NCBI GenBank assembly: GCA_039105265.1
Contig: JAPFFF010000027.1
Location: forward strand, 124,001-188,000
DNA from: Tritrichomonas musculus
Lineage: Eukaryota; Parabasalia; Tritrichomonadida; Tritrichomonadidae
Length of the DNA: 64,000 nt
Direction: 5' to 3'
The position numbers and the translations under genes were made by a program. Shown in pieces: positions 35,097 through 57,707 of this stretch. Position 1 is the stretch's first letter. The number at the start of each line of letters is the position of its first letter. The notes below the pieces were generated by a model. That model saw only the letters and a list, made by a program, of their open reading frames with translations, was not told the origin of the DNA and did no database searches.

Positions 35097-35780
35097 TTAG
35101 AATTGGAATTCTGGATGATATTCTGATACGAAACTATTCCATTCTTCAACTTTTTTGCGAGCATCATTCAATTGTTGTTTAAGATTTTCATTATCAGGAT
35201 GTTCTGTGAGCTGTTTCTTAATGTTGTTGTAATTATTAATATCATATCTCAAATCATCTTGCTCATTTGGATCAAGACTATGTGCATCATCACGAACTCC
35301 CCAACATTGTTTGTTGACTAATTCTGTATCAATCTTTAATGTAAACTTCTTGGCAATTTCTTTGAAGACTGGCTTAGCATTCTCAACAGTATCTGGTTTA
35401 TGTTGTTTTTCAAGTGTTTCGTGAACCTTGTTATTAATAGACTTCATGATGTCTGAAACAGTGAAAGCATATTCAATGTCAACCCATTCTGCCACAAAAT
35501 GTATGATATCTGGATGTACATATACACCACGAAAACCATTAGGTGCATCATTTAAAATGTATTTTGGAGGTTTGGATGGATTTCGTTGAGACCAATATTG
35601 GCATATTTGGTTGAATCTATCACTTTTGATGAAATGACGAGATGGTTTTGAATCGTTTCCAAGTTTACTTGCATTGATGTATCCATCTTTGTCACGAATC
35701 ATTACAGATATTCCATTGAATGTGCCACGAGTGAATGTTTCACCTGAGTTTGTTGTGAATGTTTCGACTTTGCTGTTCAT
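35097..35780 (-). CDS. KilA-N domain protein
   Basis: 227 residues with a KilA-N domain at about 18-125: GTFNGISVMIRDKDGYINASKLG, a conserved Trp/Tyr middle, then GVYVHPDIIHFVAEWVDIEYAFTVSDIM. KilA-N is a DNA-binding fold of large DNA viruses, phages and Mavericks. The remaining C-terminal part is helical and charged (KKVEEWNSFVSEY). It probably regulates element transcription or replication. Convergent with the broken gene at 34421-35073 and downstream of the hairpin-repeat block, which lies in its promoter region. Confidence 0.85.
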   Translation of the reverse strand: MNSKVETFTTNSGETFTRGTFNGISVMIRDKDGYINASKLGNDSKPSRHFIKSDRFNQICQYWSQRNPSKPPKYILNDAPNGFRGVYVHPDIIHFVAEWVDIEYAFTVSDIMKSINNKVHETLEKQHKPDTVENAKPVFKEIAKKFTLKIDTELVNKQCWGVRDDAHSLDPNEQDDLRYDINNYNNIKKQLTEHPDNENLKQQLNDARKKVEEWNSFVSEYHPEFQF

Positions 35781-36446: not shown

Positions 36447-36802
36447 TGTTAGCGCTAACTGGTACAGTCGTAGAGTCATGAAGCATGTCTCCCAGCTTCG
36501 GTGGCAGGCATGAGTTCGATTCTCCTCGGTGCCGATTTTTCGTATTATTTCCGGTCCATATTTGTGATAGAGCCCAAGCGAACTAAACACCTTGGGTAAG
36601 CTATTACTTGTGGATTATGGGGTAATACGGGCATTTGCCGGCATTTGCAATCCTTTGTAATGAAAGATTCGTTCTTTCCCCAGCCATAGTGGATGCAGAT
36701 CCTTTCCTATAAGGGATGATATAATCCCGGGTACATATTGTTCCTTATTCGAATGCAGTACGCATCCACGTAGACGGATTGGTTTTTGCATTTTTGCTTT
36801 TA
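36447..36802 (+). ncRNA. Candidate structured Maverick RNA, copy A
   Basis: Non-coding stretch with strong local pairing. It starts with the palindrome GTTAGCGCTAAC, then tRNA-promoter-like boxes (TGGTACAGTCGTAGAG near 36459; GAGTTCGATTCTC at 36511-36523) and a T-run at 36535-36539. Three hairpins follow: CCCAAG/CTTGGG flanked by ATAG/CTAT, GGATT/AATCC with an inner GGC/GCC, and GAAAGA/TCTTTC. A perfect 8-bp stem GTGGATGC (36688-36695) / GCATCCAC (36761-36768) encloses CCTTTC...AAGG and GGGAT/ATCCC. GGTTTTTGCATTTTTGCTTTT comes last, from 36780. The same order and nearly the same spacing occur in segment B at 47121-47450. Strand is inferred from the boxes and T-run. Confidence 0.55.
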
Positions 36803-39800
36803 AGATTTGAATATTGCAAGAGTGGTTTCATTTATTTTTGCTGTGACCTTTCCAACAATTGATTGCTGAATGCGTAAAGTCATTGCATAATCTTCATCCA
36901 AGATCTTTCCATTATAGAGAATTACGTCACCAATTTGATAGAGATTTGCATCATCAACTGTGAATAACATGTCTCCATGAGAAGCAAATTTGATACATCC
37001 ATTTTCAACATCCACTTCTGTAATCACTCCAACGAACTCTTTATAGGATCCATTGATTACTACACTACAAATGCAATCAGTTGAATCGTTAGCAGTGGAA
37101 CTAATGAAGGATCCGTTAACATATTTATATACATGTCCACTCATGAATACAGGCTTTCCTGCAACGAAATCAGATATGTTTTGACCTGCTTCGATTGGAC
37201 AGTAGTGAGTGATTGTATTTGAACCATTGGATGTTATTTTGCCAGAAACATATAAATTTGAATCAATTGTTGTATTTCTTGCAGTACCAAACATGCTAAA
37301 TGATTGAAATCTATGACCATCAACATATATAAATACTTCACCAGTATCAGCAGTTTTTGAAGACCTATACATAAAGACAGTATTATAAGTATCATTATAT
37401 CCAAATCTAAATAAAACAAGTGTATTAGAATCAATAGAACTAAAGAAACTTGCAATATTACTTTCGGTACTATTAATTGATAATGAACCATCATCATTTT
37501 TTGATACATATTTATTCAAGTCAACTGGTTCAGGGATATCCGTTTTCAATGCATACTTTCCATCAGCCACATCCTTGGTCTCATACTTATCTAATTCATA
37601 AGCCAATTCATCTTCATCAACAAACTTCTCATCCGCCTGGGCACTAGTGTAATATGGTGTCAAGTCAACTGGTTCTGGGATATCACTCTTCAATGCATAA
37701 GGTTCTAGATCAATAGTAGGAATGTCAGTTTTGAGTGCATAAGGTTCTAGATCTCCACCATAAGTCACATATTCTGTAAAGTATGTTTCGTTAGGATCAT
37801 AATTTAGGAGAGTCTCATCAGAAAAATTGGAATTAACGTTCAAAAATCTGACTTTACCATCTTTCCAGTAATAAATGCTGGTGTCTAACCTAATTTGAGT
37901 ATATCCTTGTTGCCCCGGGAATGTAAACCTTTTCTTGGTATTAGTAGTAGCATTTTGGACTTCTATATTTTGAAGAGTACCATCTATAACATCCCCAGTA
38001 ATACCCACCCAATCTGGTTCGTTCACAGAATTTGTCCACCTTAGTACTATTTTTACACCAAAATTCGTAGGTTTCTTAGCTAAATTAAATACAAAAGAAT
38101 TTCCACCATCCTTTCTGTCAACTTCATATGGGATATTATTAGTTTTAGTGGCATATGGTTCTAGATCAACAGTAGGAATATCAGTCTTGAGTGCATATGG
38201 TTCTAGATCAACAGTAGGAATATCAGATTTTAATGCATAAGTATTCGACACATATCTAGCCGAATAAGCGTTTTTGTCTGTTGGTTCGATAGTTTTGGTT
38301 ATTGAACATGATAGTATTTCCGGTGTATCACCAGTTCCTGGATTGATTAATTTATGGGAGTGATACAGAATCCAAAGACCAGAACTACTTCCGTCGATAT
38401 GCAGTATCTGAGAGGGTTGATTATCATCATCGTCATTGTACGAATAATCTACGTGAACATAATGAGCCGTATAGAAACTGTCTGATGAAACAATATCCAA
38501 CCCACATTGCTCAATCAGTTCATGATGTGTGGCGTAATCCAAATCAGGAATTGTATTATCGTCATTGTACGAATAATCAACGTAAACATAATGGGCCGTA
38601 TAGAAATTGTCTGATGAAACAATATCCAACCCATATTGCTCAATCAGTTCATGATGTGTGGCGTAATCCAAATCAGGAATTGTATTATTGATGATTTCGA
38701 ATTGAATTGTTGTTTGATCCTCAATAATTTCTGGGATTTCACTCTTCATTGCTATTTCATCTGTTCCGTCTTCAGCCAAAATTGATATAATATAAACCAT
38801 CGGTCCTTTACAATATGTTGTTGAATTTTCTAGCAGTAATGTACCATCATACTTCCAAAACAAACTGTATTCAGTACCTTCAACATTAATGAAGTTATCA
38901 CACCAATATCCTAGTGAACTAAAATTACCGGTTGTGAATACATAATCATATTCAATACCATTATATCTAAATTTGATGAAACATTTTTCATAAACATGAT
39001 GACAAATACCGTTTTCTTCTATACTTCTATCAATTTCGAATTGATTTAGCTTTGTTATACTTAAATCATTCATTTTACGATAAGACTGTAAGTCCTGTTT
39101 CTTCGAATACTCTTCTAAATTTGTAAGCTTTGCATAATCATTTAATGTAGTCGTTAACGATTCATTTGTAACCAAATTCTCTGGCATTTTTGGGATCTCA
39201 TTCAGCCAATTTGTTTTATGGTTTTCAATGAGTTTCTTGATAGCAGCAGCAGACATCAATTGCTTATTTGTTAACGTTTCACCTAAACCTAATTCAGAAT
39301 TCTCAACTTTGGTTGTATACTTGATTCTAACTGATAATGGTTCATGACTTCCCATGGTGATAATCATTAAATATGGATCTTCGAAAGTAATTTCATAAAG
39401 TGACCCATTTGATGACTCATTTGATGTGAAACTCTTATCATCATTGATGGAATACGTATTTAACTTGATTACTTCACCTTCATTGTCCACTTTGGTTTCA
39501 ACTTCTAATGTACCTTTCAATGTATCAGTATAATATCTGTGACAATATTTCTCATTTGGGATCTCAATGATGGTATCAACATATGTCAATTCTTTAATGA
39601 TTTCTCTTGATTGATTCACAGATTTGTCTCTAACAACTTCATCAATATCTTCTAATTCTATTCCATCATCTTTATCAGCATCTTTGGCAAATGATAGTTT
39701 AGAAAGACCTTTAATTCCATCAATAGAGATTTGCAATAGATCTCCAGCACCAACTTTCCCAAATGTAAATACAGATGATCCAATGTTAACGAACTTACCG

Positions 39801-41596
39801 GCAATGTAATCAAACCAGCTGAATTTAGGTTGCATATCATCAAATTCTTTCTGCAAACGATTACAATATTTCTCCAAAGATGATATGTCGTTAACAGCTA
39901 TATCAACAACATTCCCTAACGAATTCAATTCAAAGATATGTGATTCAATATTCTCTCCAATGACTATTCCAGATGTTTGGATATTGAAGTTTGTCATCAA
40001 TGTTGTGCAAGATTCAGGTCTAGGTGATACAGAATAGTAACCCGTTGAAGCTAGAAACTCGAATGTATTGCCACCTGGGTATTCAATATTTTCATCAATT
40101 GGGATGTTGAATTCTGGATCAGCCTTCATGTAAACTCTCAAATTATCAGAATCTGTTTCAATAAATGATTCATAACGGTAAGGGATATATTCAAAATAGT
40201 TGTCGGTTTTGATCTCATATGTATGCTCATGCTTCCATGAATATTTGAATCCAATGATGAATTCATAAGTATGTCCATCAAGGGTTAATGTAGCAGAATA
40301 GTCTCCACTCTTATCTTCATTGCATCCAAACCATACACGCCAGACATCATTGGTTTCATCTGGATCACCCATTCTAGTATTGGAACTATATGTTATCATA
40401 CCCTTGTCAAGCATCATCTTTAATGGATTCCCGGATTCAAAATTGATTAGACCTTTCAAAGCAAATATGTTAGCAGCATTCTTCTTGATTGAAATGTATG
40501 GAATGTCTCTATTCAAAGATCCATATGAATTCTCTTTACGCATCTTCAGTGGAATGTTAACGCAATAATTGGTACCAATCCATTTACCTCCAGATTTAGT
40601 AAGCTTGTAATGAGTCCCAAATACGTTATCATGAAGCTCGAATGTCTGTCCTTCAATGAGTGAATTGAATGAATCGGAATCAGGATTATATCCCCAGTCA
40701 GCATAATATAAACCATTTGCAATATCCAAATTGTAATCTCCGATTGACTTGATTGTATAGAAATCTGGTAAAGGAGACCTATAGAGTTTGAAGCAATTGT
40801 CAGCATCAATGAGATTACACTTGAGATTCATTAATGTACCTTCAGCACAATCTTTAATAACTGAGATTTGATGCATTTTCCCAACGAATTTGATCTTCAT
40901 GAATCCATCAGTATATAGTTCAAATGGGTCGTAGATTGCAGATTTCGACATGTATATTCGAGGTTTTGATTCATTGCTGATGTACTTCAATTGATATTTC
41001 TCATCAATGTATTCAATAATGGGATTCGTGAATGATTCATTCTCGAATGAAATATAAGCATTTTCAATTTCAAGATTCTTGGGAAAGATGATCTCAAAGA
41101 CTTGTCCACTTACAGATCCAGAGCAATCAATCTCAAGAATGTTGTATGTTGAATGGCCCTGAGGATCCGAACGGACTTCTCCCTGAGAATCTCTTAGATC
41201 CAAATCACTTAATTTATGGATATTATTTGCATCAATTATGAATTCATCACAACCTTCTTCATAAGTCATTACCTTCTCGATTGCAGATGGAGGAGCATTC
41301 TCTAAAGTTGATATTCTATCTTCATGGTCAGCAAGTTTGGTTCCATGTGTATCGATAACGGTTCGATGTGATTGAATGTCGCTAGTTATATCCGTTAATG
41401 CTTCCCCAAATGTTTCGAAACATTCTTTGACACTTTGAGGTTCACCATATTCTTCACCAAAGAAGATTTTACAACTACCATCTATTGTGGCATCACCTTT
41501 AACATGAATTGAATCAAATATTCCATCACCACCTTTGCCAGAACCTCCTACCAAGGCTCCATCTAATGCATTTTGTTTGGTTAATATTGCAGTCAT
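36800..41596 (-). CDS. Giant fibre-like structural protein
   Basis: 1598 residues. The N-terminus (GGSGKGGDGIFDSIHVKGDATIDG) and a heptad helix (ISDIQSHRT...LADHEDRISTLENA) are like virion-fibre bases. A long beta-rich middle follows. The C-terminal third has many copies of YALKTDIP and DLEPYALKSDIP, the linker type seen in phage and virus tail fibres. It ends in a beta-rich tip (TITHYCPIEAGQNISDFVAGKPVFMSGHVYKY). A 43-residue segment is duplicated in tandem (about 969-1055). A role as a receptor-binding fibre of a Maverick virion is inference from architecture. Divergent from the Gln-rich gene across 44 bases. Confidence 0.7.
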   Translation of the reverse strand: MTAILTKQNALDGALVGGSGKGGDGIFDSIHVKGDATIDGSCKIFFGEEYGEPQSVKECFETFGEALTDITSDIQSHRTVIDTHGTKLADHEDRISTLENAPPSAIEKVMTYEEGCDEFIIDANNIHKLSDLDLRDSQGEVRSDPQGHSTYNILEIDCSGSVSGQVFEIIFPKNLEIENAYISFENESFTNPIIEYIDEKYQLKYISNESKPRIYMSKSAIYDPFELYTDGFMKIKFVGKMHQISVIKDCAEGTLMNLKCNLIDADNCFKLYRSPLPDFYTIKSIGDYNLDIANGLYYADWGYNPDSDSFNSLIEGQTFELHDNVFGTHYKLTKSGGKWIGTNYCVNIPLKMRKENSYGSLNRDIPYISIKKNAANIFALKGLINFESGNPLKMMLDKGMITYSSNTRMGDPDETNDVWRVWFGCNEDKSGDYSATLTLDGHTYEFIIGFKYSWKHEHTYEIKTDNYFEYIPYRYESFIETDSDNLRVYMKADPEFNIPIDENIEYPGGNTFEFLASTGYYSVSPRPESCTTLMTNFNIQTSGIVIGENIESHIFELNSLGNVVDIAVNDISSLEKYCNRLQKEFDDMQPKFSWFDYIAGKFVNIGSSVFTFGKVGAGDLLQISIDGIKGLSKLSFAKDADKDDGIELEDIDEVVRDKSVNQSREIIKELTYVDTIIEIPNEKYCHRYYTDTLKGTLEVETKVDNEGEVIKLNTYSINDDKSFTSNESSNGSLYEITFEDPYLMIITMGSHEPLSVRIKYTTKVENSELGLGETLTNKQLMSAAAIKKLIENHKTNWLNEIPKMPENLVTNESLTTTLNDYAKLTNLEEYSKKQDLQSYRKMNDLSITKLNQFEIDRSIEENGICHHVYEKCFIKFRYNGIEYDYVFTTGNFSSLGYWCDNFINVEGTEYSLFWKYDGTLLLENSTTYCKGPMVYIISILAEDGTDEIAMKSEIPEIIEDQTTIQFEIINNTIPDLDYATHHELIEQYGLDIVSSDNFYTAHYVYVDYSYNDDNTIPDLDYATHHELIEQCGLDIVSSDSFYTAHYVHVDYSYNDDDDNQPSQILHIDGSSSGLWILYHSHKLINPGTGDTPEILSCSITKTIEPTDKNAYSARYVSNTYALKSDIPTVDLEPYALKTDIPTVDLEPYATKTNNIPYEVDRKDGGNSFVFNLAKKPTNFGVKIVLRWTNSVNEPDWVGITGDVIDGTLQNIEVQNATTNTKKRFTFPGQQGYTQIRLDTSIYYWKDGKVRFLNVNSNFSDETLLNYDPNETYFTEYVTYGGDLEPYALKTDIPTIDLEPYALKSDIPEPVDLTPYYTSAQADEKFVDEDELAYELDKYETKDVADGKYALKTDIPEPVDLNKYVSKNDDGSLSINSTESNIASFFSSIDSNTLVLFRFGYNDTYNTVFMYRSSKTADTGEVFIYVDGHRFQSFSMFGTARNTTIDSNLYVSGKITSNGSNTITHYCPIEAGQNISDFVAGKPVFMSGHVYKYVNGSFISSTANDSTDCICSVVINGSYKEFVGVITEVDVENGCIKFASHGDMLFTVDDANLYQIGDVILYNGKILDEDYAMTLRIQQSIVGKVTAKINETTLAIFKS
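38431..38688. repeat. 129-bp tandem duplication inside the fibre-like gene
   Basis: CGTCATTGTACGAATAATC begins at 38431 and again at 38560, a period of exactly 129 bases (43 codons). The two copies differ at only a few positions, including Tyr/Cys and Asn/Ser changes. The frame is kept, so the protein gains one module. Confidence 0.9.
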
Positions 41597-41640
41597 TTAT
41601 ATTAAAGTTAAACAATTTTTGGTGCCAATCAAAGTATAAA

Positions 41641-42954
41641 ATGGTTGACATATTTGATTCATCTAGTAATTCTCGAGCTCAAAGTCCAGTTCTTCCTAAT
41701 GCTCAACATGCTAATCCTAATCTAGCATATCATCAATATCAAAGGCAACAACAACCACCAAATCAACGACAATATCAAAGGCAGCAACCACCACCACCAC
41801 CACCACGACAGCAACAGCAACCACAACAACAACAATATCAACTGCAACCAAGACAGCAATATCAACTGCAACCAAGACAGCAACAATATCAACAACCATA
41901 TCAACAACAATATCAACAACCATATCAACAGCAATATCAACAACCATATCAACAACCATATCAACAACCATATCAACAACCATATCAGCAGCAATATCAA
42001 CAACAATATCAACAACCATATCAACAACCATATCAACAACCATATCAACAACCATATCAGCAGCAATATCAGCAGCAATATCAGCAACAATATCAGCAAT
42101 ATGAGCAACCACATCAGCAACAACATCAGCAACATCAGCAACATCACCAACGTCAACCATATAGACAAGAAGCTGTCCATAGAAATCCTTATCAACCACG
42201 AGCTGCATCGTCATCAAGTCCATCACGATCACCAACTCCAAATCGAATACAACAACAACGGGGTGGCTTCATAAGTCGACTATTTGATTTGAGCCACATT
42301 AATTTAAATAATAAACGAACAATGGATTTAAATGGTTCACATGGTTCAGTATCAGAGCCTAATCAAAATGCATTGAATGTCATTACTCATACTGATGATA
42401 ATAATACAGCTATAGCCATGAGGTCAATTGAGGCAGACATTAGACTTCGAGAATTAGAAAACGAAGATCGTGAAAATAGTCGTAATCATCGAGACAAACG
42501 AAAAAATAATCAATTTGATAACAATTTGATTCCAAATACTGTTCCAGAAACACCTCGAGATACAACAATTAGTAATTACATTCAACATGTGTGTCATTAT
42601 TTTGACATTGATACTCAAAATATAAATATAAATGATGTAGGTTTCACGCGTGAATTCGTAGAGCATATTGCTAAACCAAACTATGTGAATTCAATTTTAT
42701 TCTATGGAGTTGAAGCATGCCATGCCCAAGATAAGTCTTATCTTCTTATAGATTACCATAACCGAAAACGTAAATCAACATTAATAAAAATGGGTAACGG
42801 ATGGTCCTATGAAGTAGTGAGATCTTTGAGACCAAGAGATATAGTTCTTGTTAGATTCATGCTAAATGATTCAATTAGAAATACTGGATCTTTGAAAATA
42901 ACAGAAGATAACTGTCCTCGTTGTCGTGGCTGCCCATGCTGGCCATTCTGTTAA
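41641..42954 (+). CDS. Gln/Tyr/Pro-rich repeat protein with Cys-rich C-terminus
   Basis: 437 residues from the ATG at 41641, chosen because upstream in-frame codons overlap the divergent fibre gene. After a short leader come Pro/Gln-rich runs and a block of YQQP and YQQQ units (about residues 80-160), encoded by 12-base repeats. The central part is disordered and Asn-rich. The last ~130 residues look folded (YVNSILFYGVEACHAQDKSY, LRPRDIVLVRF) and end CPRCRGCPCWPFC, which may bind metal. Function unknown. It is followed after 17 bases by the conserved core protein, suggesting shared expression. Confidence 0.7.
   Translation: MVDIFDSSSNSRAQSPVLPNAQHANPNLAYHQYQRQQQPPNQRQYQRQQPPPPPPRQQQQPQQQQYQLQPRQQYQLQPRQQQYQQPYQQQYQQPYQQQYQQPYQQPYQQPYQQPYQQQYQQQYQQPYQQPYQQPYQQPYQQQYQQQYQQQYQQYEQPHQQQHQQHQQHHQRQPYRQEAVHRNPYQPRAASSSSPSRSPTPNRIQQQRGGFISRLFDLSHINLNNKRTMDLNGSHGSVSEPNQNALNVITHTDDNNTAIAMRSIEADIRLRELENEDRENSRNHRDKRKNNQFDNNLIPNTVPETPRDTTISNYIQHVCHYFDIDTQNININDVGFTREFVEHIAKPNYVNSILFYGVEACHAQDKSYLLIDYHNRKRKSTLIKMGNGWSYEVVRSLRPRDIVLVRFMLNDSIRNTGSLKITEDNCPRCRGCPCWPFC
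41885..42110. repeat. 12-bp tandem repeat encoding YQQP/YQQQ
   Basis: Units TATCAACAACCA and TATCAACAACAA or TATCAGCAGCAA alternate about eighteen times. The third-position differences (CAA/CAG) show the array is not brand new. The reverse strand gives long but meaningless open frames. Confidence 0.9.
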
Positions 42955-42971
42955 ATTAATCATATCAAGAG

Positions 42972-44183
42972 ATGCTTGATAATATTTTTGCGTCAAGGCA
43001 AATGTCAGATATACCAGCACTCCCGCCTCAAGAGAATCCACAACCACAACCATTACCTGAACCTGCACATGAAGAAGTCATTCAAATTCGTCAACCAAAT
43101 AGAAGTAGACAACTCGAATATGATCAACATTTCCCAGCAGAAGAATTACCTGCAGAGGTTCATGAACGTAGACATACAGCAAGAATTCCAATTGGTTTCA
43201 ATTATAATCCAGAAGATGCTGAAGACATCAAGCAGCATACATTAAAGAATCTCGTTAGCAGTAGACAAGCACGTGATATTGTCAGATCCGCAAACTTCAT
43301 GCCAGGTCAATTCGGTTTATGGAATGCCAAACCAACTGGTGGAAATAATAGGTTTCAAGGTGATTTTGAAGACCTTGATGAAGATGGAATTGATGAATTC
43401 GTTGTCAGACGTGATGGCAAAATTGTAGCAGTTAATGGATACACAACCAAAGCATCAGATTTTCCATTCAAAGGTGCATATTATCAAACACATCCAACAC
43501 CACAACAACGTAAAGAAACGTCATATCGCAAATTCTTAAATGATGAATATTATGCACCTGAATATAACGATGATATGTCTGCAATCACTGCATGGGGTGG
43601 AGAAGATCCAACTACTGAAGAATTCAGACGTAAATATAAGAAACATACAACTCATGCACCTACTAAATTCTCTCCATATAGGGCATTCGCACAATTGATT
43701 GTCGCTCCAGCTTGTAAAGCAGCATTCCGTCAGGTAGCAGGTAATAACGTTGAGAAAGCTAAATTAGCACGTAGTATTGCAATAGATCTCAGTGGAAAGA
43801 AAGCTTATGAAGCAACAATGGCTTCTAAATTCTATGATACTAACGTTAAGATTCCATTCCTTAATTCAATTCGTGAACAGTTGCCAGCATTGCGTCAAGA
43901 TTTCGTTTCAATGAAGCGTAGATCAACTCCAGATTATGAAGTCAATTGGACTAATGGAAGCTTATGTTCTAAACAATTCGAACAATGGTTATTCAATAAA
44001 GCAGCTGTTAAAGAACGTATCAAAGCATATGTTCATGACATGTTATCTACACAAAGAGAACAGTTCATTACTGATGTCAAGAACAAGATTGTTGCATCAT
44101 TAAATAGAAATGACAATTTCAGAAATTCATTAACAGATTCATGGGCCATGAAACAACGACAAATGCAAGCAATCTATGAATAA
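42972..44183 (+). CDS. Conserved Maverick core protein (DxNxDG-containing), element A
   Basis: 403 residues. The N-terminal 70 residues are Pro/Gln-rich. The folded part contains DLDEDGIDEFVVRRDGKIVAVNGY, a calcium-loop-like segment that aligns with DLNGDKVDDVILIDRNGNPSIINGY in the segment-B protein at 50319, followed in both by a basic QQRKETSYRKFL / KQERKEMPFNKWI region. A helical C-terminus (REQLPALRQDF, KAAVKERIKAYVHDML) follows. Presence in both elements and a position beside capsid genes suggest a virion or assembly function. An alternative start is the ATG at 43002 (MSDIPALPP). Confidence 0.7.
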   Translation: MLDNIFASRQMSDIPALPPQENPQPQPLPEPAHEEVIQIRQPNRSRQLEYDQHFPAEELPAEVHERRHTARIPIGFNYNPEDAEDIKQHTLKNLVSSRQARDIVRSANFMPGQFGLWNAKPTGGNNRFQGDFEDLDEDGIDEFVVRRDGKIVAVNGYTTKASDFPFKGAYYQTHPTPQQRKETSYRKFLNDEYYAPEYNDDMSAITAWGGEDPTTEEFRRKYKKHTTHAPTKFSPYRAFAQLIVAPACKAAFRQVAGNNVEKAKLARSIAIDLSGKKAYEATMASKFYDTNVKIPFLNSIREQLPALRQDFVSMKRRSTPDYEVNWTNGSLCSKQFEQWLFNKAAVKERIKAYVHDMLSTQREQFITDVKNKIVASLNRNDNFRNSLTDSWAMKQRQMQAIYE

Positions 44184-44217
44184 AAATAATACTTTGTGAA
44201 TCGTTTCAGAACATATT

Positions 44218-45039
44218 CTATATTACATTTCCATTATTGCAATCGATTATGATCTTCTGGTGTTTATTCATATTTTTGTATCGTTCATACAATTCATCAA
44301 ATGATATGCTCATAGTAATCTGATGAGTAATGTATCTCAACTGCTCTTTTGAATATGTCCCAAATACGAATACCGTAGAGACATTTGATTTAATGGTTGT
44401 TGATAGCGATTTCCAGAACTGGACATTCAAGAAGAATGATATATGGTTATGTCGACATGTAGTCATCAGATTGTTGAAATATGATTTCTCATTTGCAAGT
44501 AATTTGTTATTAGCAATATCATCAAATAGTATCAAGGTATGCAACATTGGTGCACGAAAATCATTAACTTTCAATGCTTTGAATATCTCGATTCGTTGCT
44601 CATCAATGATTTGATTCTCTAAATGTTCCTTCCTTATTGTGTAATACAGTTGCTTATAATTCAATAATGCATTAACATATTCTTCAGCATTCTCTTGGGA
44701 AACATATGCTATTGGTATTTCAATGAGTTCCCTTAATGACTCAAATGTAACATCTTTCTGTTCACCTGTTTTGGATATATATATGAGAAGATGTGCTGCA
44801 TTTGGAATTGAAGCTATTTTAATGATTTCTTCAATTGCTGATAACGTCTTTCCGGAACCTTGTTTGCCAACGAATATATTCACAGAATTATAGTAAATAT
44901 TGATGTCTTTGTGAATCTTTCTGATCAATGCATTCGTGACTTGTCCTTTATTTCTTCTCAAGCAATCTCTAACCATATCATGAACGTAGCTGAATGAGTC
45001 TTGATTCCCAAACGAAGTCGTAAAGCTTTGATTATACAT
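44218..45039 (-). CDS. A32-like genome-packaging ATPase
   Basis: 273 residues. Walker A GKQGSGKT at 58-65 and Walker B LILFDD at 169-174, followed by a conserved TTCRHNHISFFLNVQ segment with the sensor Gln, as in the FtsK/HerA-type packaging ATPases of Mavericks and nucleocytoplasmic large DNA viruses. It would pump element DNA into a procapsid. It converges with the core protein at 42972 and lies head-to-tail with the coiled-coil gene at 45171. No homologue is visible in segment B. Confidence 0.9.
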   Translation of the reverse strand: MYNQSFTTSFGNQDSFSYVHDMVRDCLRRNKGQVTNALIRKIHKDINIYYNSVNIFVGKQGSGKTLSAIEEIIKIASIPNAAHLLIYISKTGEQKDVTFESLRELIEIPIAYVSQENAEEYVNALLNYKQLYYTIRKEHLENQIIDEQRIEIFKALKVNDFRAPMLHTLILFDDIANNKLLANEKSYFNNLMTTCRHNHISFFLNVQFWKSLSTTIKSNVSTVFVFGTYSKEQLRYITHQITMSISFDELYERYKNMNKHQKIIIDCNNGNVI

Positions 45040-45170
45040 TTACAGTTAATTAAAATGGATGCAAACATAAGCTTGCAAAAGTCTCAAAAATGGGTGTGCC
45101 CAAAATAGGGCGGACCTAAAATCCTAATGAAAATGGATTCAAAAATATTTGCAAAAAGTTTTTTCGAATA

Positions 45171-45524
45171 TCATTCACCATTAATTGCTTTAACAATGTC
45201 GTTGATGGCTGTCTTGATTGCAAGAATATCACTTTTGAGTTGCTCTATTTCATTCTGTATATCCAAGATTGCAGACTCATTTTCACGATCAATTTGTGGA
45301 TCATTTTGTGATTCATCTACCTGTTTCTTGACAGCTTTCTTTAGACAAAGTACACCTTTGATTTTGGTAATACGATATCCCTCAATGTAATACATCTTAT
45401 TAAGTTTATGAGTCGTAATCTTATCAATCTCGTCTTTATTTTTAGCATACCACAGATTGAATTCATCTGGAGTATTAAATGTTTTCAAATATTCTTTAAT
45501 AGGTCCAATCACTTTTACTTCCAT
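45171..45524 (-). CDS. Conserved Maverick coiled-coil protein, element A
   Basis: 117 residues. The first half (FNTPDEFNLWYAKNKDEI, then LNKMYYIEGYRITKIKG) aligns with the segment-B protein at 57025 (EEFNLFYQKNIEQM, LNKIYKIITNDG). The second half is a coiled coil (IQNEIEQLKSDILAIKTAIND). In both elements it sits next to the pVI-like gene, so it probably belongs to the capsid module. Exact role unknown. Confidence 0.65.
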   Translation of the reverse strand: MEVKVIGPIKEYLKTFNTPDEFNLWYAKNKDEIDKITTHKLNKMYYIEGYRITKIKGVLCLKKAVKKQVDESQNDPQIDRENESAILDIQNEIEQLKSDILAIKTAINDIVKAINGE

Positions 45525-45579
45525 TTGATGTCACATAAAAATAAACAATCACATTAAATCATCAATGGACTCATTTAAA

Positions 45580-45927
45580 TCACTTCAAGATTGGAGTTAG
45601 TCTACCTTTATTTCCACCAAGAATTGGTCTTTGAATCATTTCCACCTTATTGTTTGAATCGTCTTTAATTATTGAATCGAAATTTGTGAAATCTATTGGT
45701 AAAGGTTTTGGTTTGATTGGGTTTGTTTTAGGTGGAATTGGCGCAACTTTATTGAGTAAGTAATCAGCTCCATTAGCAATACTATTAACGATGCCGCCAA
45801 CTGTATCACCAAACATAGGTCCAACTTTTCGTGCTATTTCAATTCCCTTACGAATGTATGGAGATGCTTTCTTTATGAAATTCTTTCCTTTCACCAGCAA
45901 GTTCTTAAACCAGGTTCCGAATGCCAT
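45580..45927 (-). CDS. Small pVI-like capsid-associated protein, element A
   Basis: 115 residues. The N-terminus MAFGTWFKNLLVKGKNFIKKAS is a basic amphipathic helix, followed by a Gly/Ile-rich stretch and a Pro/Lys-rich tail. This resembles the membrane-active minor capsid proteins of the adenovirus protein VI type that Mavericks are thought to encode. The segment-B counterpart is at 56734. It is divergent from the capsid gene start at 45984 across 56 bases, as in segment B. Confidence 0.55.
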   Translation of the reverse strand: MAFGTWFKNLLVKGKNFIKKASPYIRKGIEIARKVGPMFGDTVGGIVNSIANGADYLLNKVAPIPPKTNPIKPKPLPIDFTNFDSIIKDDSNNKVEMIQRPILGGNKGRLTPILK

Positions 45928-45983
45928 TTTCTTTGGGTTTGTATTAAAATCTCAAAAATGTAACTTCACACGAATCTTTTTTA

Positions 45984-46214
45984 ATGCAAGCTCAAAGAAT
46001 GACATATCAGAACGCCCAACTCAAGAACACAGGTAATGACGAAGGTGATGTCCTAAAATTCTTCCAATCAAAACTTCGAAATCTCATTGCATACAATGGT
46101 GGTGATCATACATTTGGATGGTTTACAGAAGATGTTGATGATAAAGATGCTCCCATGCCAATTGGAACCAAAACGAAAATCAAATGGACACATCAAGGTA
46201 GTAGTATAGTATAG
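45984..46214 (+). pseudogene. Major capsid protein, N-terminal fragment (element A)
   Basis: 76 residues that align with the start of the segment-B capsid protein: both have an N-terminal TGN...VL..F....RN.I..N.G pattern, then a D..D..AP...G stretch and a conserved TH. The match and the frame end at about 46205-46214, where GC-rich hairpin sequence takes over. About 85 % of the gene is missing, so element A cannot make its capsid from this copy. Confidence 0.7.
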
Positions 46215-46243
46215 GCGGTGTCTCATACTTCGCCACCGCCTAC
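46213..46243. repeat. GC-rich hairpin at the A/B junction
   Basis: TAGGCGGTG and its exact complement CACCGCCTA are separated by 13 bases. It begins right where the capsid fragment of element A stops. The following ~100 bases stay unusually GC-rich for this contig. Confidence 0.75.
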
Positions 46244-47120
46244 ACTGCTCGCCACCAAGCTCAGGTACACCTTCGCTTGGGCCTCGCTACCCGGCCAAAT
46301 ATCCTCTGAAAACCTATCGTAAGTACACACTCTCTACTTTCACTATTCCACCAATGTCATTTCCAAGGTATGAAGTAGTTTTTGAGATTTCTAATGGTGT
46401 TTTTTGAATTCTACACCCGAAAATACGGTATTTCTTGTATAGGCACGACCCCGAAATATTGAGTTTTGATTGAGTTAATATTTTCTCTCAAATATTTTTA
46501 TGCCAGAAGTATATTTTTTTTCTCTCAAATATTTTGAAAAGATTTTATAAAAATATTCTTAAAAAGTTAACTAGACACCAAGATATTTTAATATTATTTT
46601 TCACTTTTTGAATTTAAATTTTTATTATTTTATTATGGATTTTAATTAATTTTTCAAAATTTTTGTTCCACTTTTTGAATTTAAATTTTTGTATTGCGCA
46701 AGCTTGCTCAGTCTTGTTCAATCTTGCGCAAGCCTTTCGCAACTCTTGCGCAAGTACACCTCTCTGGCATCCTAAAATTTTCATTAAAATTGAGAAATAA
46801 AATTTTTTCCTTTAAAATTATAATATTTGTGAAAGAAAATTTTATTAATAAATTGATAGATAAAATTTTTTATTATTTTTACAAGTTTATGGTTATAATT
46901 TATTAAAATTAATTTTTATAAAAAATGTCGGACTTTCTATTTTTCGAACCATGTAACTTTCCACCAAATATTACCATTGAGCTATGACCCCATACAAGAA
47001 TATTTTTGGATGGTTTATTTTTAAAACTGAATTCTGAATATATTATTTGAGTTATTATAATATATTTCAATATTTATTTGGTTTTATATTTATTCAAAAT
47101 CGAGTTTCCATCTTTGTCTA
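46244..47120. other. Non-coding left part of segment B
   Basis: No gene supported. It contains three copies of the palindrome TTGCGCAAG (46694-46702, 46724-46732 and 46746-46754) within 61 bases and AT-rich DNA on both sides. It may be the terminal region of segment B. Confidence 0.45.
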
Positions 47121-47450
47121 TGCGTGTGTCGTAATGGTTAAACTCCCTACCTAACATCCTAGGTTCGACATATATCCGGAACGCATTTTTTCTGAGTTAT
47201 GAGAAAGAGTGGACTTTGAGTGAAATCTGTGAAAACTTGGATTTGTGGCTAAGTTGTGAGTTGTTCGTTAACAATTATTCCGCAAACAAAAAACTTATTG
47301 AGTTAAGTTTCCATCTTCCTGATCGAGGCCATTAACTTCCCCTAGTTAACGGACGGCTCCTTTCAATAAGGATTTCATTTGGAGTAGATCTCTTTTATAA
47401 GTAATTCAGAAAAAGGCCTCTCAGGGTTGGTTTTTGCACTTTTGTTTTTA
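47121..47450 (+). ncRNA. Candidate structured Maverick RNA, copy B
   Basis: Counterpart of 36447-36802. GTGTCGTAATGGTTAAAC (A-box-like) and AGGTTCGACA (B-box-like) are followed by a six-T run (47186-47191). Three hairpins follow: AACTT/AAGTT, TTGTT/AACAA and AACTTA/TAAGTT. A stem GAGGCC (47325-47330) / GGCCTC (47415-47420) encloses TTAACT/AGTTAA and CCTTTCAATAAGG. GGTTTTTGCACTTTTGTTTTT starts at 47429. The distance from GTTCGA to GGTTTTTGCA is 266 bases here and 267 in copy A, although primary sequence has mostly diverged. TGCGT and ACGCA at the edges of the tRNA-like head can pair, but a full cloverleaf does not form. Confidence 0.55.
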
Positions 47451-47463
47451 TATTTTTATAAAA

Positions 47464-48714
47464 ATGTATCCAACACTAAATCCTACAGAAGAACAAACAC
47501 CTATACCAATTGAATATGCTTACTTTTTAGAAGATGGGGAACGAGATAAAACAAGACCTAATCGTTTTTATTTTAATTATCCTCAAGATTGGGTTACTTC
47601 AAATAGAGGGGAATCAATAATAGGCGTAAGAAATATATGGACAAATAATAGAAGAAGAAAAATTGCTTACACGATAGGAATCAGAAAATATTATAAAAAA
47701 GATTATGATGACAAAAAGCTAAATAACCCAAATCAATCATATGATGACCTTTATTTATCTATTCCTAATGATAGGAAATCAGAATTATTTTATAATTTAA
47801 CTTCTTGGATTCCTTCAGAAAAAGATTTAAGAGAAATATTAAGTGATTTGAGGTATTTTTTAGAACCAGAGTTTAAAAAATATAATGTTGCTCCAATTGC
47901 ATTAAATAAATTTCTTCATTCTTCAATTGATACACAAAAAAAGAAAATAGAAGATGAAATAGAAAAGAAAATGAATGAAACATTACAACTTGATAATGAA
48001 ATAGCAAATAGTGTTGATTTAAATGAAATAGCACAAAAAACATTTCAAAGACAGATTTTATATAATGAGTGCTGGGAATTGAGAAGAAAAAAGGATGAAT
48101 TGGAGGAATCAAAAAAATTAGTTGGACAACCTGTTTTTGATTTAAAGGATGTTGGTATGGATGGATATTATGATTATAACAAAAAGAAATTTATTGAAAT
48201 AATGTACTCACCTTGTAATGAAGATGAAAATAATCCATTTTATGTTGATTTATCAATTAGCTTTCGCATAAGACCTTTTAAAAATGGAATACAAGATAAT
48301 TCTATTAATGCTATTTATGATTTTGTTGATGTTATGAATGTTGGTTATGAACCTTTTCAAAATAATCCAAACAAATACATGGACTTAGAGAATCCTATTG
48401 AAGACAAAAATGAAAATATAGTGAGATATGAAGGTATATGGATGAGAGAAATACAATTTGAGGACGTGTGGGATAGAGTTAGTTGCAAAATATATTCATC
48501 AATAGCAGAACAATCATCAAAAGGATATTTAGGGAATAGTAAAGTTATATTTAACCCAATCAAATACTTCAAGCTAAACTCAACTGATCAAAGATTTTGG
48601 ATAGAATTCTATTCAGGGCGTCATAATCAGATACCAGTAAAGATACCAAATAATGAAACATTTTATATTGAGATGCAATTCATGCCATTCAATAAGAAAT
48701 TGATGTATGTTTAA
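47464..48714 (+). CDS. Unknown segment-B protein, possible minor capsid candidate
   Basis: 416 residues from the ATG at 47464 (MYPTLNPTEEQTP), the first ATG in frame. The central part has a long Glu/Lys coiled coil (about 155-215). The C-terminal ~150 residues look beta-rich (VDLSISFRIRPF, RFWIEFYSGRHNQIPVKIPNNETFYIEMQFMPF). A beta-rich end in a Maverick suggests a penton-like or other structural protein, but no signature proves it. No homologue remains in element A, whose corresponding part may be missing. It follows the structured RNA candidate directly. Confidence 0.55.
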   Translation: MYPTLNPTEEQTPIPIEYAYFLEDGERDKTRPNRFYFNYPQDWVTSNRGESIIGVRNIWTNNRRRKIAYTIGIRKYYKKDYDDKKLNNPNQSYDDLYLSIPNDRKSELFYNLTSWIPSEKDLREILSDLRYFLEPEFKKYNVAPIALNKFLHSSIDTQKKKIEDEIEKKMNETLQLDNEIANSVDLNEIAQKTFQRQILYNECWELRRKKDELEESKKLVGQPVFDLKDVGMDGYYDYNKKKFIEIMYSPCNEDENNPFYVDLSISFRIRPFKNGIQDNSINAIYDFVDVMNVGYEPFQNNPNKYMDLENPIEDKNENIVRYEGIWMREIQFEDVWDRVSCKIYSSIAEQSSKGYLGNSKVIFNPIKYFKLNSTDQRFWIEFYSGRHNQIPVKIPNNETFYIEMQFMPFNKKLMYV

Positions 48715-48725
48715 GACTAATTTAA

Positions 48726-49844
48726 ATGAACAAAAAGCATTTTAAGACAATTAATGAGCTTCATTCTTTTTTTCCTTGGAGATCTGCCTCTAAATTTGTT
48801 CCACTCGCAAAACGATATGGATTCACAGAAGAAGCCGCATTAGATTATTTAAGGAAGATAGTACATGATGTAAAGGTACCAAAGGCAAAGTTTATGAATA
48901 TCTATTCTAAACACTCTGGAGGATATCAAATGGACACATTCATCAATGATAAGACAAAGGATGGTCTCAACTATTTGATGCTAATTAATATTAACACAAG
49001 AAAAGCATATTGTTATCCAATGAAGGGGAAAGGTGCAAAAGAAGTAGTCAAGGCATAAAATAAATTTTTTGAGGACGAACCAGATGTCTATTCGATAACA
49101 TCAGACCAGGATGCTGCTTACTTGTCCAATGATGTATTACAGTTGATGAAGACCAAAAATATTGTTTACACTACTACCGAGGATAATAATCATAATGTAC
49201 TAGGTATCATAAATAGGTTCATGAGAACGATTAGAGACATGGTAGGCGAGAACAGGTTCATCAATGAGAAAGAAATGGATAGTTTAATAGATTCATACAA
49301 CAATTCTCCCCACAGATCATTGGACTATAAGATACCAAACGAGATGACAGAGAAAGATGAAAAAGAATATGTAAAAACCAAGTCGCAAAACAATCCATAT
49401 GACTTTAAGCCAAATGATAGAGTTAGAATTATTCAGGCTAAGGAGCCATTTTCGAAGCGCAGGAACAAGGTAAGCAAGGAAGCATATATAGTTGATTCAA
49501 AGGCTGGGAACCAATTTATAATTAAGTCCAAAGATGAGTCAATAGACAAACTCCCTGGTTATAGGTTAATCAAGACACAAAACAAAAATAAAGGTTCAAA
49601 GGGCAATGAGGCTGAAGTGCCTCTGGCCAAAACACTTAAGGGAGGCAAGAGAGGTATTGTGGAGAAGATTATTTCTTATGATACAACAAAGAACAAATAT
49701 AAAATTAAATACAGCGAAGGTACAGAAGACATCATACCGGCTAAAAATTTACGAGAAGGTGCTCCAACAAAGCTATCTAATCTTGAAGTGGATTACTGGT
49801 CAAAGAAGAAAAATATACCTGTAAAAATACGTCAGTGGATTTAA
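48726..49844 (+). pseudogene. Maverick integrase 1 of segment B, with one in-frame stop
   Basis: One frame of 372 codons interrupted only by TAA at 49056-49058. The core has Asp70 in YQMDTFIND, a second Asp in ITSDQDAAYL and Asn in GIINRFMRTIRDM, where Glu is expected. After it come YNNSPHRSL and a small beta domain (GKRGIVEKIISYDTTKNKYK, EGTEDIIPAKNL) of the chromo/Tudor-like type seen in some integrases. The stop lies between the first and second catalytic residues, so the product is dead unless the stop is read through. The nearby stop-free frame shows that the lesion is recent. It starts 11 bases after the previous gene. Confidence 0.8.
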
Positions 49845-49876
49845 AAATATTTTTATATATTTTTTCACTATGATAA

Positions 49877-50308
49877 ATGTCAACTGAACTGGCTACAGAA
49901 TTTGTTCCATTAATTGGTTTCGAAGATAGTTATGAAATACTTAATCAATATCCATTTACAATAAAAAGAAAGAAAGACAACAAAATTGTAAATGAGTGGA
50001 TTGAAAATAATGGTTACTGTAGATTACATTTAATTATCAATGGAAAACAAAAGAAATTTCAAAAACATGTATTGATAGCTAAGCAATTTATTCCTAATGA
50101 TGACCCCGAAAATAAAAAATATGTTGACCATTTAAACCACAACAGAATAGATAATAGAATTGATAACCTACGTTGGGTATCTGCATCAACAAATGGGCTA
50201 AACATAATTATCGACATATCTTTTAATGTATTCGTTAATCAATCCGTCAATAGTATTTGTTTTTGTTATGTGTCCGCTCTGCTCAATCGTAAACATTCAA
50301 TTTATTAG
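49877..50308 (+). CDS. NUMOD4-HNH endonuclease
   Basis: 143 residues. NUMOD4-like N-terminus (FVPLIGFEDSYEI, PFTIKRKK), then the HNH core VDHLNHNRIDNRIDNLRW (83-100) with Asp84-His85 and Asn residues in the usual places, followed by VSASTN. Such enzymes cut DNA and are common in phages and large viruses as homing nucleases. The last ~33 residues (IIDISFNVFVNQSVNSICF) do not look like the family, so the C-terminus may be altered by a late frameshift. Element A has only the N-terminal part of a relative at 34183. Confidence 0.75.
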   Translation: MSTELATEFVPLIGFEDSYEILNQYPFTIKRKKDNKIVNEWIENNGYCRLHLIINGKQKKFQKHVLIAKQFIPNDDPENKKYVDHLNHNRIDNRIDNLRWVSASTNGLNIIIDISFNVFVNQSVNSICFCYVSALLNRKHSIY

Positions 50309-50318
50309 AAACTAAACA

Positions 50319-53732: not shown

Positions 53733-53744
53733 TTTGAATAGTCA

Positions 53745-54125
53745 TTAATAAATCAAAAGACAACTGAATATAAATGATTCAGGTTCAATAACGTTTCCTT
53801 TCATATCTGTGAACCATAAATGATATTCTTTTTTTGTGTTGTTCAGACACTCATATTTTCTGTATTTGGTTTGTCGTCTGTTAGCAAGCATAATGAAATG
53901 GTCACAGAAAGGCATGAATTCAACTATATCTGAATGAACCATCAAATCACCAACAATATGTTGATTGACAACAGCACCACAATACTTAACAACAATGTAC
54001 TTCTTGTTGCGACTATAAACGAAATCATCAGGAAGATTAAAATCTTTTGTTTGTGTGTGATAGTATCGTTTTGTGATTGGCAACTTCGTTGACTCAAGCT
54101 TTGCTTGTGATTGTTTAGCTTTCAT
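53745..54125 (-). CDS. Unknown small segment-B protein
   Basis: 126 residues. A basic N-terminus is followed by a compact beta-rich domain (YIVVKYCGAVVNQHIVGDLMVHSDIVEF, FCDHFIMLANRR) and an aromatic-rich end (YHLWFTDMKGNVI). The fold looks globular, but no motif of the Maverick cysteine protease (His, Cys in the right order) is clear. Its start overlaps the end of the integrase at 54115 by 11 bases. Confidence 0.55.
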   Translation of the reverse strand: MKAKQSQAKLESTKLPITKRYYHTQTKDFNLPDDFVYSRNKKYIVVKYCGAVVNQHIVGDLMVHSDIVEFMPFCDHFIMLANRRQTKYRKYECLNNTKKEYHLWFTDMKGNVIEPESFIFSCLLIY

Positions 54126-56684: not shown

Positions 56685-56733
56685 TTATGATTGAATAAAA
56701 AGGAAATAAATCACTTTTATCATTAATTAAATT
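56685..56733. promoter_or_regulatory. Bidirectional promoter between capsid and pVI-like genes
   Basis: Only 49 bases separate the two divergent start codons. TTATCATTAATTAAATT lies just before the plus-strand ATG, and TATTCAATCATAA before the minus-strand ATG. Both resemble the trichomonad initiator (TCA with following T/A and TCATTA). The same divergent pair in element A is separated by 56 bases. Confidence 0.45.
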
Positions 56734-56988: not shown

Positions 56989-57024
56989 AAAACAATGAAT
57001 TATAATGATTTAATATAATTATAA

Positions 57025-57693: not shown

Positions 57694-57707
57694 TTAATTG
57701 TTATTAA
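57694..57707. promoter_or_regulatory. Very short divergent intergenic (TTAATTGTTATTAA)
   Basis: Only 14 bases separate two divergent ATGs. The sequence is near-palindromic. If both genes are expressed, their core promoters must overlap each other's coding starts. Confidence 0.3.

What the first reader, a model, noticed from the sequence alone, without database searches (positions are those of the whole stretch)
36447..47450. A structured RNA candidate shared by two diverged Mavericks
Both elements carry a non-coding stretch with the same order of parts: tRNA-promoter-like A and B boxes, a T-run 22-23 bases after GTTCGA, three hairpins, a closing stem around a CCTTTC...AAGG hairpin, then GGTTTTTGCAYTTTTGYTTTT. 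The distance from GTTCGA to GGTTTTTGCA is 267 bases in one and 266 in the other. The stems differ in sequence but keep pairing (GTGGATGC/GCATCCAC against GAGGCC/GGCCTC). Compensatory change plus fixed spacing indicates selection on RNA structure. I know of no described RNA of this kind in Mavericks.
Basis: partly seen in the sequence, partly recalled or inferred. Interest (0 to 1): 0.75.

Follow-up and report, generated by a model that had tools for sequence, protein, structure and literature searches.

The report
Maverick-borne Pol III-like structured RNA family
Virus-like jumping elements in the genome of a mouse gut protist carry many copies of a roughly 330-letter non-coding unit whose folded shape has been kept while its letters changed, so they very probably make an undescribed structured RNA; the second, similar-looking stretch in this window is not shown to be the same RNA.

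Summary
Copy 1 (36448-36787, +) belongs to a real structured-RNA family in Tritrichomonas musculus. A 15-base core word (up to 1 mismatch) occurs 252 times against 11 for its reversed control. On 35 model-aligned matches (30 distinct) domain D2 keeps 96.0% of cells paired, 17 pairs changed on both sides, 0/500 shuffles as good; slid partners give 27-54%. Pairing is strand-specific: 152 G-U cells against 1 A-C. Of 74 core-containing stretches, 72 have A box, B box and a T-run, 71 the TTGG/TCGG-T5 end; 29 of 30 representatives have a further T>=5 run within 30 bases. RNA domains were swapped between copies. KilA-N or PolB genes flank 5 of 9 contexts examined. No Rfam match.

Its scored copies are >=99% identical, so covariation is untestable.

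No transcript was tested. Best reading: a Pol III-type three-domain RNA of Maverick-like elements; function inferred.

The parts
36448..36459 (+). 12-base perfect palindrome just upstream of the A box; part of a 5' leader or a protein site
   Evidence: GTTAGCGCTAAC in copy 1; other families carry a different perfect palindrome at this place (e.g. L037, L084) or a partly palindromic word (L069, L080)
36460..36540 (+). Domain D1: hairpin that carries the A-box-like word (36460-36470) and the B-box word (36514-36522), closed by 36461-36465 with 36529-36533, then T5 (36536-36540)
   Evidence: The closing stem occurs as GGTAC/GTACC and GGTAT/ATACC in relatives, 64 of 69 parsed. ARAGORN calls no tRNA here and Rfam no tRNA
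36541..36648 (+). Domain D2: helices P2-P5 with the loop CGAACTAAACACC (invariant in the sample, which was chosen by a core word overlapping it), and hairpin P6
   Evidence: CM R1 hit at 36540-36648, E=3.7e-14; pair counts
36648..36787 (+). Domain D3: hairpin P7, closing stem P8 (GTGGATGC/GCATCCAC and outward to TTGG), long inner hairpin P9, 3' T5 (36783-36787)
   Evidence: CM R2 hit at 36648-36786, E=1.6e-20; stem variants
36791..36801 (+). Back-up T-runs (T5, T4) after the 3' T5
   Evidence: 29 of 30 representatives have a T>=5 run within 30 bases after the first
35097..35780 (-). KilA-N gene of the host element, pointing away from the unit
   Evidence: Pfam KilA-N E=1.5e-16; KilA-N genes also flank L020, L026, L027, L032
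36800..41596 (-). 1598-aa ORF that converges on the unit; its stop codon lies in the back-up T-run
   Evidence: no Pfam match
44218..45039 (-). A32-like packaging ATPase, supports a virus-like (Maverick-like) element
   Evidence: Pfam Pox_A32 E=5.1e-06, 26.6 bits against a cut-off of 22.8
47120..47191 (+). Copy 2, tRNA-promoter-like part: outer stem ATGCGT (47120-47125)/ACGCAT (47181-47186), A-box-like 47127-47137, B-box-like 47162-47168, T6 (47186-47191)
   Evidence: not folded better than shuffles (z=-0.7)
47192..47409 (+). Copy 2 body: one long imperfect foldback (not the three-domain fold of copy 1)
   Evidence: z=-3.3 for the body, -3.9 for the whole unit; pairing probabilities; inverted repeat 47187-47199/47402-47414
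47429..47449 (+). Copy 2 3' end: GG, then T5, T4 and T5
46200..58256 (.). Element 2, a Maverick-like element bounded by inverted AGTAGTATA termini; copy 2 lies between its left end and the first gene (47464)
   Evidence: the same left end stands upstream of the homologous gene in fetched relatives such as L150 and L157; rve-like integrase 54115-55191, E=3.4e-05, below cut-off

Best explanation
Copy 1 is a gene for a structured non-coding RNA carried by Maverick-like elements. Host RNA polymerase III would bind the internal A and B boxes in the 5' hairpin (D1) and transcribe through D2 and D3 to the T5 after the closing stem, with further T-runs as back-up, giving an RNA of roughly 310-350 nt. 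The T4-T5 run after D1 would end part of the transcripts early, giving a hairpin of about 80 nt as a second product. The long RNA folds into the D1 hairpin, a multi-helix domain with a conserved loop (D2) and a closed stem with a long inner hairpin (D3); the conserved loops are most simply protein-binding sites, so the RNA probably works as the RNA part of a ribonucleoprotein used by the element, comparable in kind to virus-encoded Pol III RNAs. SHOWN: family, strand, pairing, T-runs, modular exchange, virus-like genes beside part of the copies. INFERRED: transcription, polymerase, ends, protein partners, function. Copy 2 is a separate Pol III-like unit with a foldback, whose relation to copy 1 is unproven.
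For: Copies: 352 DNA candidates, 40 scored at 79-100%; core word 252 v 11. 7 loci (L026-L032) share the unit at 82-85% but no flank similarity to the window by blastn at E<=1e-10. Pairing: anchor-based parsing (67 of 69, 25 distinct rows) gives 97.5% paired v 24-49% when slid, and 11 both-side pairs v 0-2; tree-aware null, sum of G 408.5 v maximum 207.9 in 300 simulations, paired 0.949 v maximum 0.893; model-aligned D2, 0/500 shuffles on all five measures. Closing stem P8 pairs in many distinct variants, among them a 17-bp stem in L069 and a 20-bp stem of other sequence in L081. Hairpin P7 is replaced by hairpins of other sequence at the same place. Strand: 152 G-U v 1 A-C cells. Pol III signals: A box-B box-T4+ pattern in 72 of 74 and TTGG/TCGG-T5 end in 71 of 74 core-containing stretches; no internal T5 in 30 bodies (9.2 expected by shuffling, rows related); second T>=5 in 29 of 30. 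20 of 20 host tRNA genes examined are followed at once by T>=5, and 19 of 20 hold an internal T4, so the T4 found after D1 in 21 of 69 copies need not stop Pol III. Modular exchange: win1 v L034 D1/D2/D3 identity 0.83/1.00/0.65.
Against: No transcript data. 48 of 69 copies have T5 after D1, the length directly after 4 of 20 host tRNA genes, so the long RNA may be a minor product there. The tRNA control is 19 tRNA-Lys and 1 tRNA-His, close to one gene family. The 69 copies were parsed by a pattern that itself requires both T-runs, so only the 72/74 and 71/74 figures bear on their presence. The copies are related and recombining, so counts are not independent and one tree is only approximate. 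The helix anchors were set by eye after seeing the sequences, and the alignment was fitted by a model. In one search helices P1 and P4 are not significant alone (p=0.06, 0.10). One part of helix P5 is kept in only 81.7% of cells, and P6 has two mismatches in 17 of 64 copies. All copies analysed hold the exact core word, which biases its conservation. Model R2 also hits the opposite strand in 13 of 50 matches, at 27-45 bits. That element 1 is a Maverick rests on KilA-N, the A32 ATPase and, in relatives, PolB below cut-off; its ends were not found, and 4 of 9 contexts examined (L024, L028, L035, L037) gave no Pfam family above cut-off.
Confidence: 0.68

Rival explanations
1. Only D1 is transcribed: Pol III stops at the T4-T5 run and makes an ~80-nt hairpin RNA (vault- or VA-like); D2-D3 are transcribed otherwise, for example as part of an mRNA.
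For: T5 after D1 in 48 of 69 copies; T5 is the length directly after 4 of 20 host tRNA genes.
Against: 21 of 69 copies have only T4, which 19 of 20 tRNA genes hold inside. D2 and D3 covary, D2 on the + strand; they avoid internal T5 and end in T5 plus back-up T-runs, as a Pol III gene would.
Confidence: 0.15
2. A tRNA-derived SINE-like mobile repeat that jumped into Maverick-like elements; no function for the element.
For: A and B boxes at the 5' end, a repeat unit with unlike flanks, high copy number; 5 of 30 representatives have an A7-A10 run just after the 3' T5.
Against: Maintained pairing with many both-side changes; no significant flanking direct repeat in 15 of 15 loci tested (lowest p 0.13); no A-run of 7 or more after the 3' T5 in 25 of 30 representatives; KilA-N or PolB genes beside 5 of 9 contexts examined.
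Confidence: 0.08
3. A DNA-level element: cruciform, replication or recombination site in the spacer between genes, folding as single-stranded DNA.
For: Palindrome upstream; several hairpins are near-palindromes (P6); some copies lie in inverted duplications (L069); the opposite strand gives 13 of 50 hits to model R2, 27-45 bits.
Against: 152 G-U against 1 A-C cells in D2: pairing is that of one strand read as RNA (the alignment was fitted by a model, so this leans somewhat towards pairing). A and B boxes and terminators have no role in this reading.
Confidence: 0.07
4. Copies 1 and 2 are one RNA family, with copy 2 a very distant member.
For: Same order of Pol III boxes, T-run, folded body and TTGG-T5-GCA end; global alignment of win1 and copy-2 bodies z=3.9, or 2.5 without the last 12 bases; 22 of 30 representatives p<0.05 with the 3' end, 8 of 30 without its last 12 bases.
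Against: Models R1 and R2 do not find copy 2 at E<=10 with filters off; the claimed stem has pairing probability 0; 22 of 30 representatives show no significant similarity outside the last 12 bases.
Confidence: 0.12

Closest known systems
MHV68 TMERs (tRNA-miRNA-encoded RNAs of a gammaherpesvirus)
   Same: Virus-borne, internal tRNA-type Pol III promoter at the 5' end followed by hairpins (described from recall; one search gave a search listing and abstract openings only, e.g. PMC8223928, PMC4838037).
   Different: No tRNA cloverleaf here (ARAGORN and Rfam find no tRNA); the downstream helices are conserved by compensatory change as one fold. Copy 2, with its long foldback, resembles a TMER more than copy 1 does.
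Adenovirus VA RNA and EBV EBERs (recalled)
   Same: Short structured RNAs of DNA viruses made by host Pol III from A/B boxes.
   Different: Those are about 160-175 nt (recalled); no Rfam match to any family here.
phi29 pRNA (recalled)
   Same: A structured RNA of a protein-primed DNA element; Mavericks also use protein-primed PolB (recalled).
   Different: No similarity detected by Rfam search; no link to packaging shown.
tRNA-derived SINEs (recalled)
   Same: 5' A/B boxes, dispersed unit of 300-350 bases.
   Different: No target duplications found, no consistent A-rich tail (5 of 30 with A7 or more), conserved fold, virus-like genes beside part of the copies.

Membership tests
tRNA gene | A and B boxes | tested here: met
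   Pattern of A-box word, B-box word and T4 or longer in 72 of 74 stretches; L111 and L113 lacked it
tRNA gene | Cloverleaf recognised by ARAGORN or the Rfam tRNA model | tested here: not met
   (only 61315-61387); 0 genes in 3 of 3 unit loci
Any Rfam 15 family | Match to a covariance model | tested here: not met
   Only chance-level matches with E>=1.8 for the two units; three sub-threshold snoRNA matches in a repeat of L070 outside its units
SINE | Target-site duplications | tested here: not met
   15 of 15 loci not significant
SINE | Partner LINE with shared 3' end | not tested
   No LINE search made
Virus-type Pol III ncRNA | A/B boxes plus T-run terminators | tested here: met
   with tRNA control; sequence signals only
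Virus-type Pol III ncRNA | Transcript made by Pol III | not testable with these tools
   No RNA data held
Virus-type Pol III ncRNA | Borne by a DNA virus or virus-like element | tested here: inconclusive
   KilA-N, A32 ATPase or PolB beside copies in the window, L020, L026, L027, L032, PolB 23.4 and 23.2 bits against a cut-off of 25.8; nothing above cut-off beside L024, L028, L035, L037
Maverick/Polinton (element 2) | Inverted termini | tested here: met
   AGTAGTATA at 46200 (+) and 58248 (-)
Maverick/Polinton (element 2) | Integrase and PolB | tested here: inconclusive
   rve E=3.4e-05, below cut-off; no PolB found by Pfam
Maverick/Polinton (element 1) | Inverted termini and capsid genes | tested here: inconclusive
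   No convincing inverted repeat brackets 25-46 kb; capsid not tested
Copy-1 RNA family (membership of copy 2) | Hit to models of D2 and D3 | tested here: not met
   filters off, E<=10; D1 was not modelled

The most novel reading that the evidence does not exclude
Maverick-like elements of trichomonads encode a trans-acting, Pol III-made structured RNA that they need: either a cofactor of protein-primed replication or packaging (a eukaryotic counterpart of phi29 pRNA) or a decoy of host small-RNA silencing. Co-resident element families swap its domains as modules, and several unrelated RNAs of this layout (copy 1, copy 2) arose or were acquired separately.
Probability: 0.3. Interest if true: 0.85.

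Novelty: new variant of a known kind. Interest (0 to 1): 0.7.

Why it matters
Mavericks link transposons and large DNA viruses (recalled) and are estimated to fill about a third of two trichomonad genomes, T. vaginalis and T. foetus (passages of PMC10120064), yet the searches made here listed no described structured RNA of theirs. A covarying RNA with Pol III signals, in hundreds of copies, gives a concrete handle (northern probes, two covariance models R1 and R2) on whether such elements use host Pol III and an RNA cofactor, and shows RNA domains being exchanged as modules.

Tried and rejected
Fixed 267/266 spacing as evidence: rejected, copies range 120-296. Cross-copy compensation of the two stems: rejected. 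Hyperconservation of copy 2 as evidence of selection: the unit is 99-100% identical in 36 loci while the next gene is 83-96% (17-36 loci per 50-base step), but most of those loci were picked by unit identity and neighbouring non-coding blocks are nearly as conserved (97.7-99.8%), so I read it as a mosaic young element with a variable gene, not as proof. Substitutions within copy 2 (10 variable positions in 37 of 37 loci; 8 lie in pairs, 6 keep the pair): too few to count. Relatives in viral contigs: core pattern 0 hits; the 3' motif hit 9 contigs that look like phage coding sequence on reading and were dropped; the 416-aa protein found none. A layout pattern tuned to copy 1 found only copy 1 in the window, not copy 2.
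Full report
WHERE WE ARE. The genome holding the window (G000, 193,395,805 bases) has a first contig of 11,419,247 bases, exactly the longest contig of the published Tritrichomonas musculus assembly (193.49 Mb, 29.47% GC; passages of PMC11978803). So the host is a mouse gut commensal trichomonad.

The named words are at the named places. The 3' motif is far from chance in the window (2 seen, 0.11 expected with up to 3 mismatches); genome-wide it occurs 227 times with up to 2 mismatches against 28 for the reversed pattern. GTTCGA by itself is at chance frequency.

COPY 1 IS A LARGE FAMILY. A DNA search gave 352 candidates, of which the tool scored 40, at 79-100% identity. The 15-base word AGCGAACTAAACACC occurs 252 times with up to one mismatch against 11 for the reversed control. 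Seven loci (L026-L032) match the unit at 82-85% but share no further DNA with the window at blastn E<=1e-10. ORFs beside the copies differ by family: KilA-N (window, L020, L026, L027, L032), polymerase B (L026 and L032, E about 3e-05, 23.4 and 23.2 bits against a cut-off of 25.8), paralogous small basic proteins beside others. The ORFs searched beside L024, L028, L035 and L037 gave no Pfam family above cut-off, though L024 and L037 share two flanking stretches with the window element at 69-75%. KilA-N and PolB are annotated Maverick genes in T. vaginalis (Table 2 passage of PMC7845603).

THE FOLD. From 74 stretches that hold the exact core word, 69 had both ends (L012, L033 and L036 lacked the 3' end, L111 and L113 the 5' pattern) and 30 were kept as representatives. 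Helices were first read by short sequence anchors, set by eye after seeing the sequences, in 67 of 69 (L023 and L100 did not parse). P2 occurs as CGTATTA/TAATACG, CGTGTTA/TAGCACG and CTGTGTTA/TAACACAG; P3 as GGTCCATA/TGTGGATT and GTATCATA/TGTGGTAT; P6 as CATTTG/CAAATG, CATTTA/TAAATG, CATCTA/TAGATG and GCATTG/CAATGC, with two mismatches in 17 of 64 copies, copy 1 among them. On 25 distinct rows 97.5% of cells pair, against 24-49% when the partner is slid by 1-3 bases; 11 pairs change on both sides, against 0-2. A null that re-places substitutions on the tree gave a sum of G of at most 207.9 in 300 runs against 408.5, and a paired fraction of at most 0.893 against 0.949 (35 distinct rows, 45 pairs). 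In that test P1 and P4 (p=0.06 and 0.10) and many single pairs are not significant alone, and because modules recombine, one tree is an approximation.

A covariance model of D2 built on 11 rows (R1) found each of the 33 sources given, 35 matches (the sources were part of those held). On that alignment 96.0% of cells pair, 17 pairs change on both sides, 0 of 500 shuffles reach any of the five measures, and slid partners pair in 27-54%. This alignment was fitted to the structure; the anchor-based one was not fitted by a model. Among the same cells there are 854 Watson-Crick, 152 G-U and 1 A-C, besides 41 other mismatches: the + strand read as RNA is what is kept, which a DNA palindrome or an antisense RNA would not show. 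Against this, the D3 model R2 also hits the opposite strand in 13 of 50 matches, at 27-45 bits, as expected of long stems.

The closing stem P8 pairs in a whole range of sequences (67 of 69 parsed; in one of these, L119, only six pairs formed because the anchor was misplaced), for example a 17-bp stem in L069 and a 20-bp stem of other sequence in L081. Upstream of it, hairpin P7 is replaced by hairpins of other sequence in different families. Identity per domain shows exchange of modules: copy 1 and L034 have identical D2 but 0.83 in D1 and 0.65 in D3; L083 and L087 have 0.99, 0.85 and 0.99.

POL III SIGNALS. A-box and B-box words lie in the two arms of the D1 hairpin. D1 is not a tRNA: ARAGORN and Rfam find none. 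The A box-B box-T4+ pattern is in 72 of 74 stretches and the TTGG/TCGG-T5 end in 71 of 74. In the 69 with both (the parse requires them) the run after D1 is T5 in 48 and T4 in 21, and the 3' run T5 in 68 and T6 in 1. In 29 of 30 representatives another run of five or more T follows within 30 bases, although these tails are largely unlike between families; the 30th tail was cut short. No body of the 30 holds an internal T5, where shuffles expect 9.2 (related rows; A5 is also absent with 3.2 expected). As control, 20 host tRNA genes are directly followed by T5 (4), T6 (13), T7 (2) or T8 (1), read off the printed ends, while 19 of 20 hold an internal T4; 19 are tRNA-Lys and one tRNA-His, so this is close to one gene family. 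It suggests that T4 is read through and that T5 may be a leaky stop. Thus both an ~80-nt and a ~330-nt product are possible.

COPY 2. Element 2 runs from 46200 to 58256 between inverted AGTAGTATA ends, with copy 2 between the left end and the first gene. Its scored copies are 99-100% identical (86 candidates, 40 scored), so covariation cannot be tested; ten variable positions in 37 loci say little. The 416-aa gene behind it has 1301 candidates, 100 scored. I fetched 500 bases upstream of 20 of these genes (18 at 51-54% identity, 2 at 87%), chosen outside the loci already known to carry the unit: 0 of 20 hold it, and several (L150, L157, L158) show the left terminus and the gene joined without it. 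On the other side at least three genes of the same 53-54% class (behind L039, L042 and L055) do carry it. So it is a presence/absence segment, spread over gene classes by exchange or by gain and loss. Models R1 and R2 find copy 1 (E=3.7e-14 and 1.6e-20) but nothing at copy 2 up to E=10 with filters off. Similar layout, homology unproven.

RIVALS. A SINE-like origin is disfavoured by the kept fold and by the absence of flanking direct repeats (15 of 15 loci). A DNA-level role is disfavoured by the G-U/A-C asymmetry. A short D1-only product cannot be excluded. Function is inferred; T. vaginalis has PIWI-like Argonautes and ~34-nt small RNAs that cover Maverick genes (passages of PMC7845603), which makes a silencing decoy a reasonable candidate beside a replication or packaging cofactor.

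KNOWN OR NEW. No Rfam 15 match for the two units or 5 relatives beyond weak sub-threshold hits, and only a tRNA at 61315-61387 in the whole window at gathering score. Paper searches for Trichomonas or Tritrichomonas with Maverick, Pol III, structured or non-coding RNA, and Maverick with Polinton and noncoding RNA (listings of 25 of 32, 10 of 10, 15 of 31, 15 of 16, 2 of 2 and 10 of 27 papers) list no such RNA by title; I read passages of three papers only, and the library lacks most papers of subscription journals. VA RNA, EBER and phi29 pRNA are named from recall; TMERs from recall plus a search listing.

Noticed in passing
L018 (inner part of D3), L035, L092, L113 (D3), L082 (D1): Small palindromic hairpins (e.g. 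TTTGCATGCAAA, GTCCACTCCGTGGAT, TCCGCTTTGCGGA) are inserted in the RNA's hairpins at different places; they look like mini mobile hairpins or recurrent stem extensions.
   Followed up: no
L069 1-1035 and 1449-2483: Inverted duplication with 99.9% identical 1035-base arms, each holding an RNA unit; other inverted pairs of core-word hits lie 1.3-13 kb apart on C3, C4, C6, C13, C15, C24 among the 100 places listed. Could be element ends or assembly fold-backs.
   Followed up: partly
window 47464-48714: First gene of element 2 is a variable cassette: genes of 53-100% identity stand behind a near-identical RNA unit (e.g. L039, L042, L055).
   Followed up: partly
window 46700-46799: Highly variable block (52-71% identity) inside the otherwise well-conserved leader of element 2.
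   Followed up: no
window 1397-2926: ORF with a sub-threshold match to Giardia variant-specific surface protein (E=2.1e-06, 27.4 bits against a cut-off of 31.4).
   Followed up: no
window 41566-42954: ORF with 12-base tandem repeats encoding a glutamine-rich tract, with ORFs of 168 and 152 aa open on the other strand.
   Followed up: no
D1 of the copy-1 family, e.g. L020, L026, L093: The part of the hairpin between A and B boxes is replaced by other sequence in some families while both boxes stay.
   Followed up: partly
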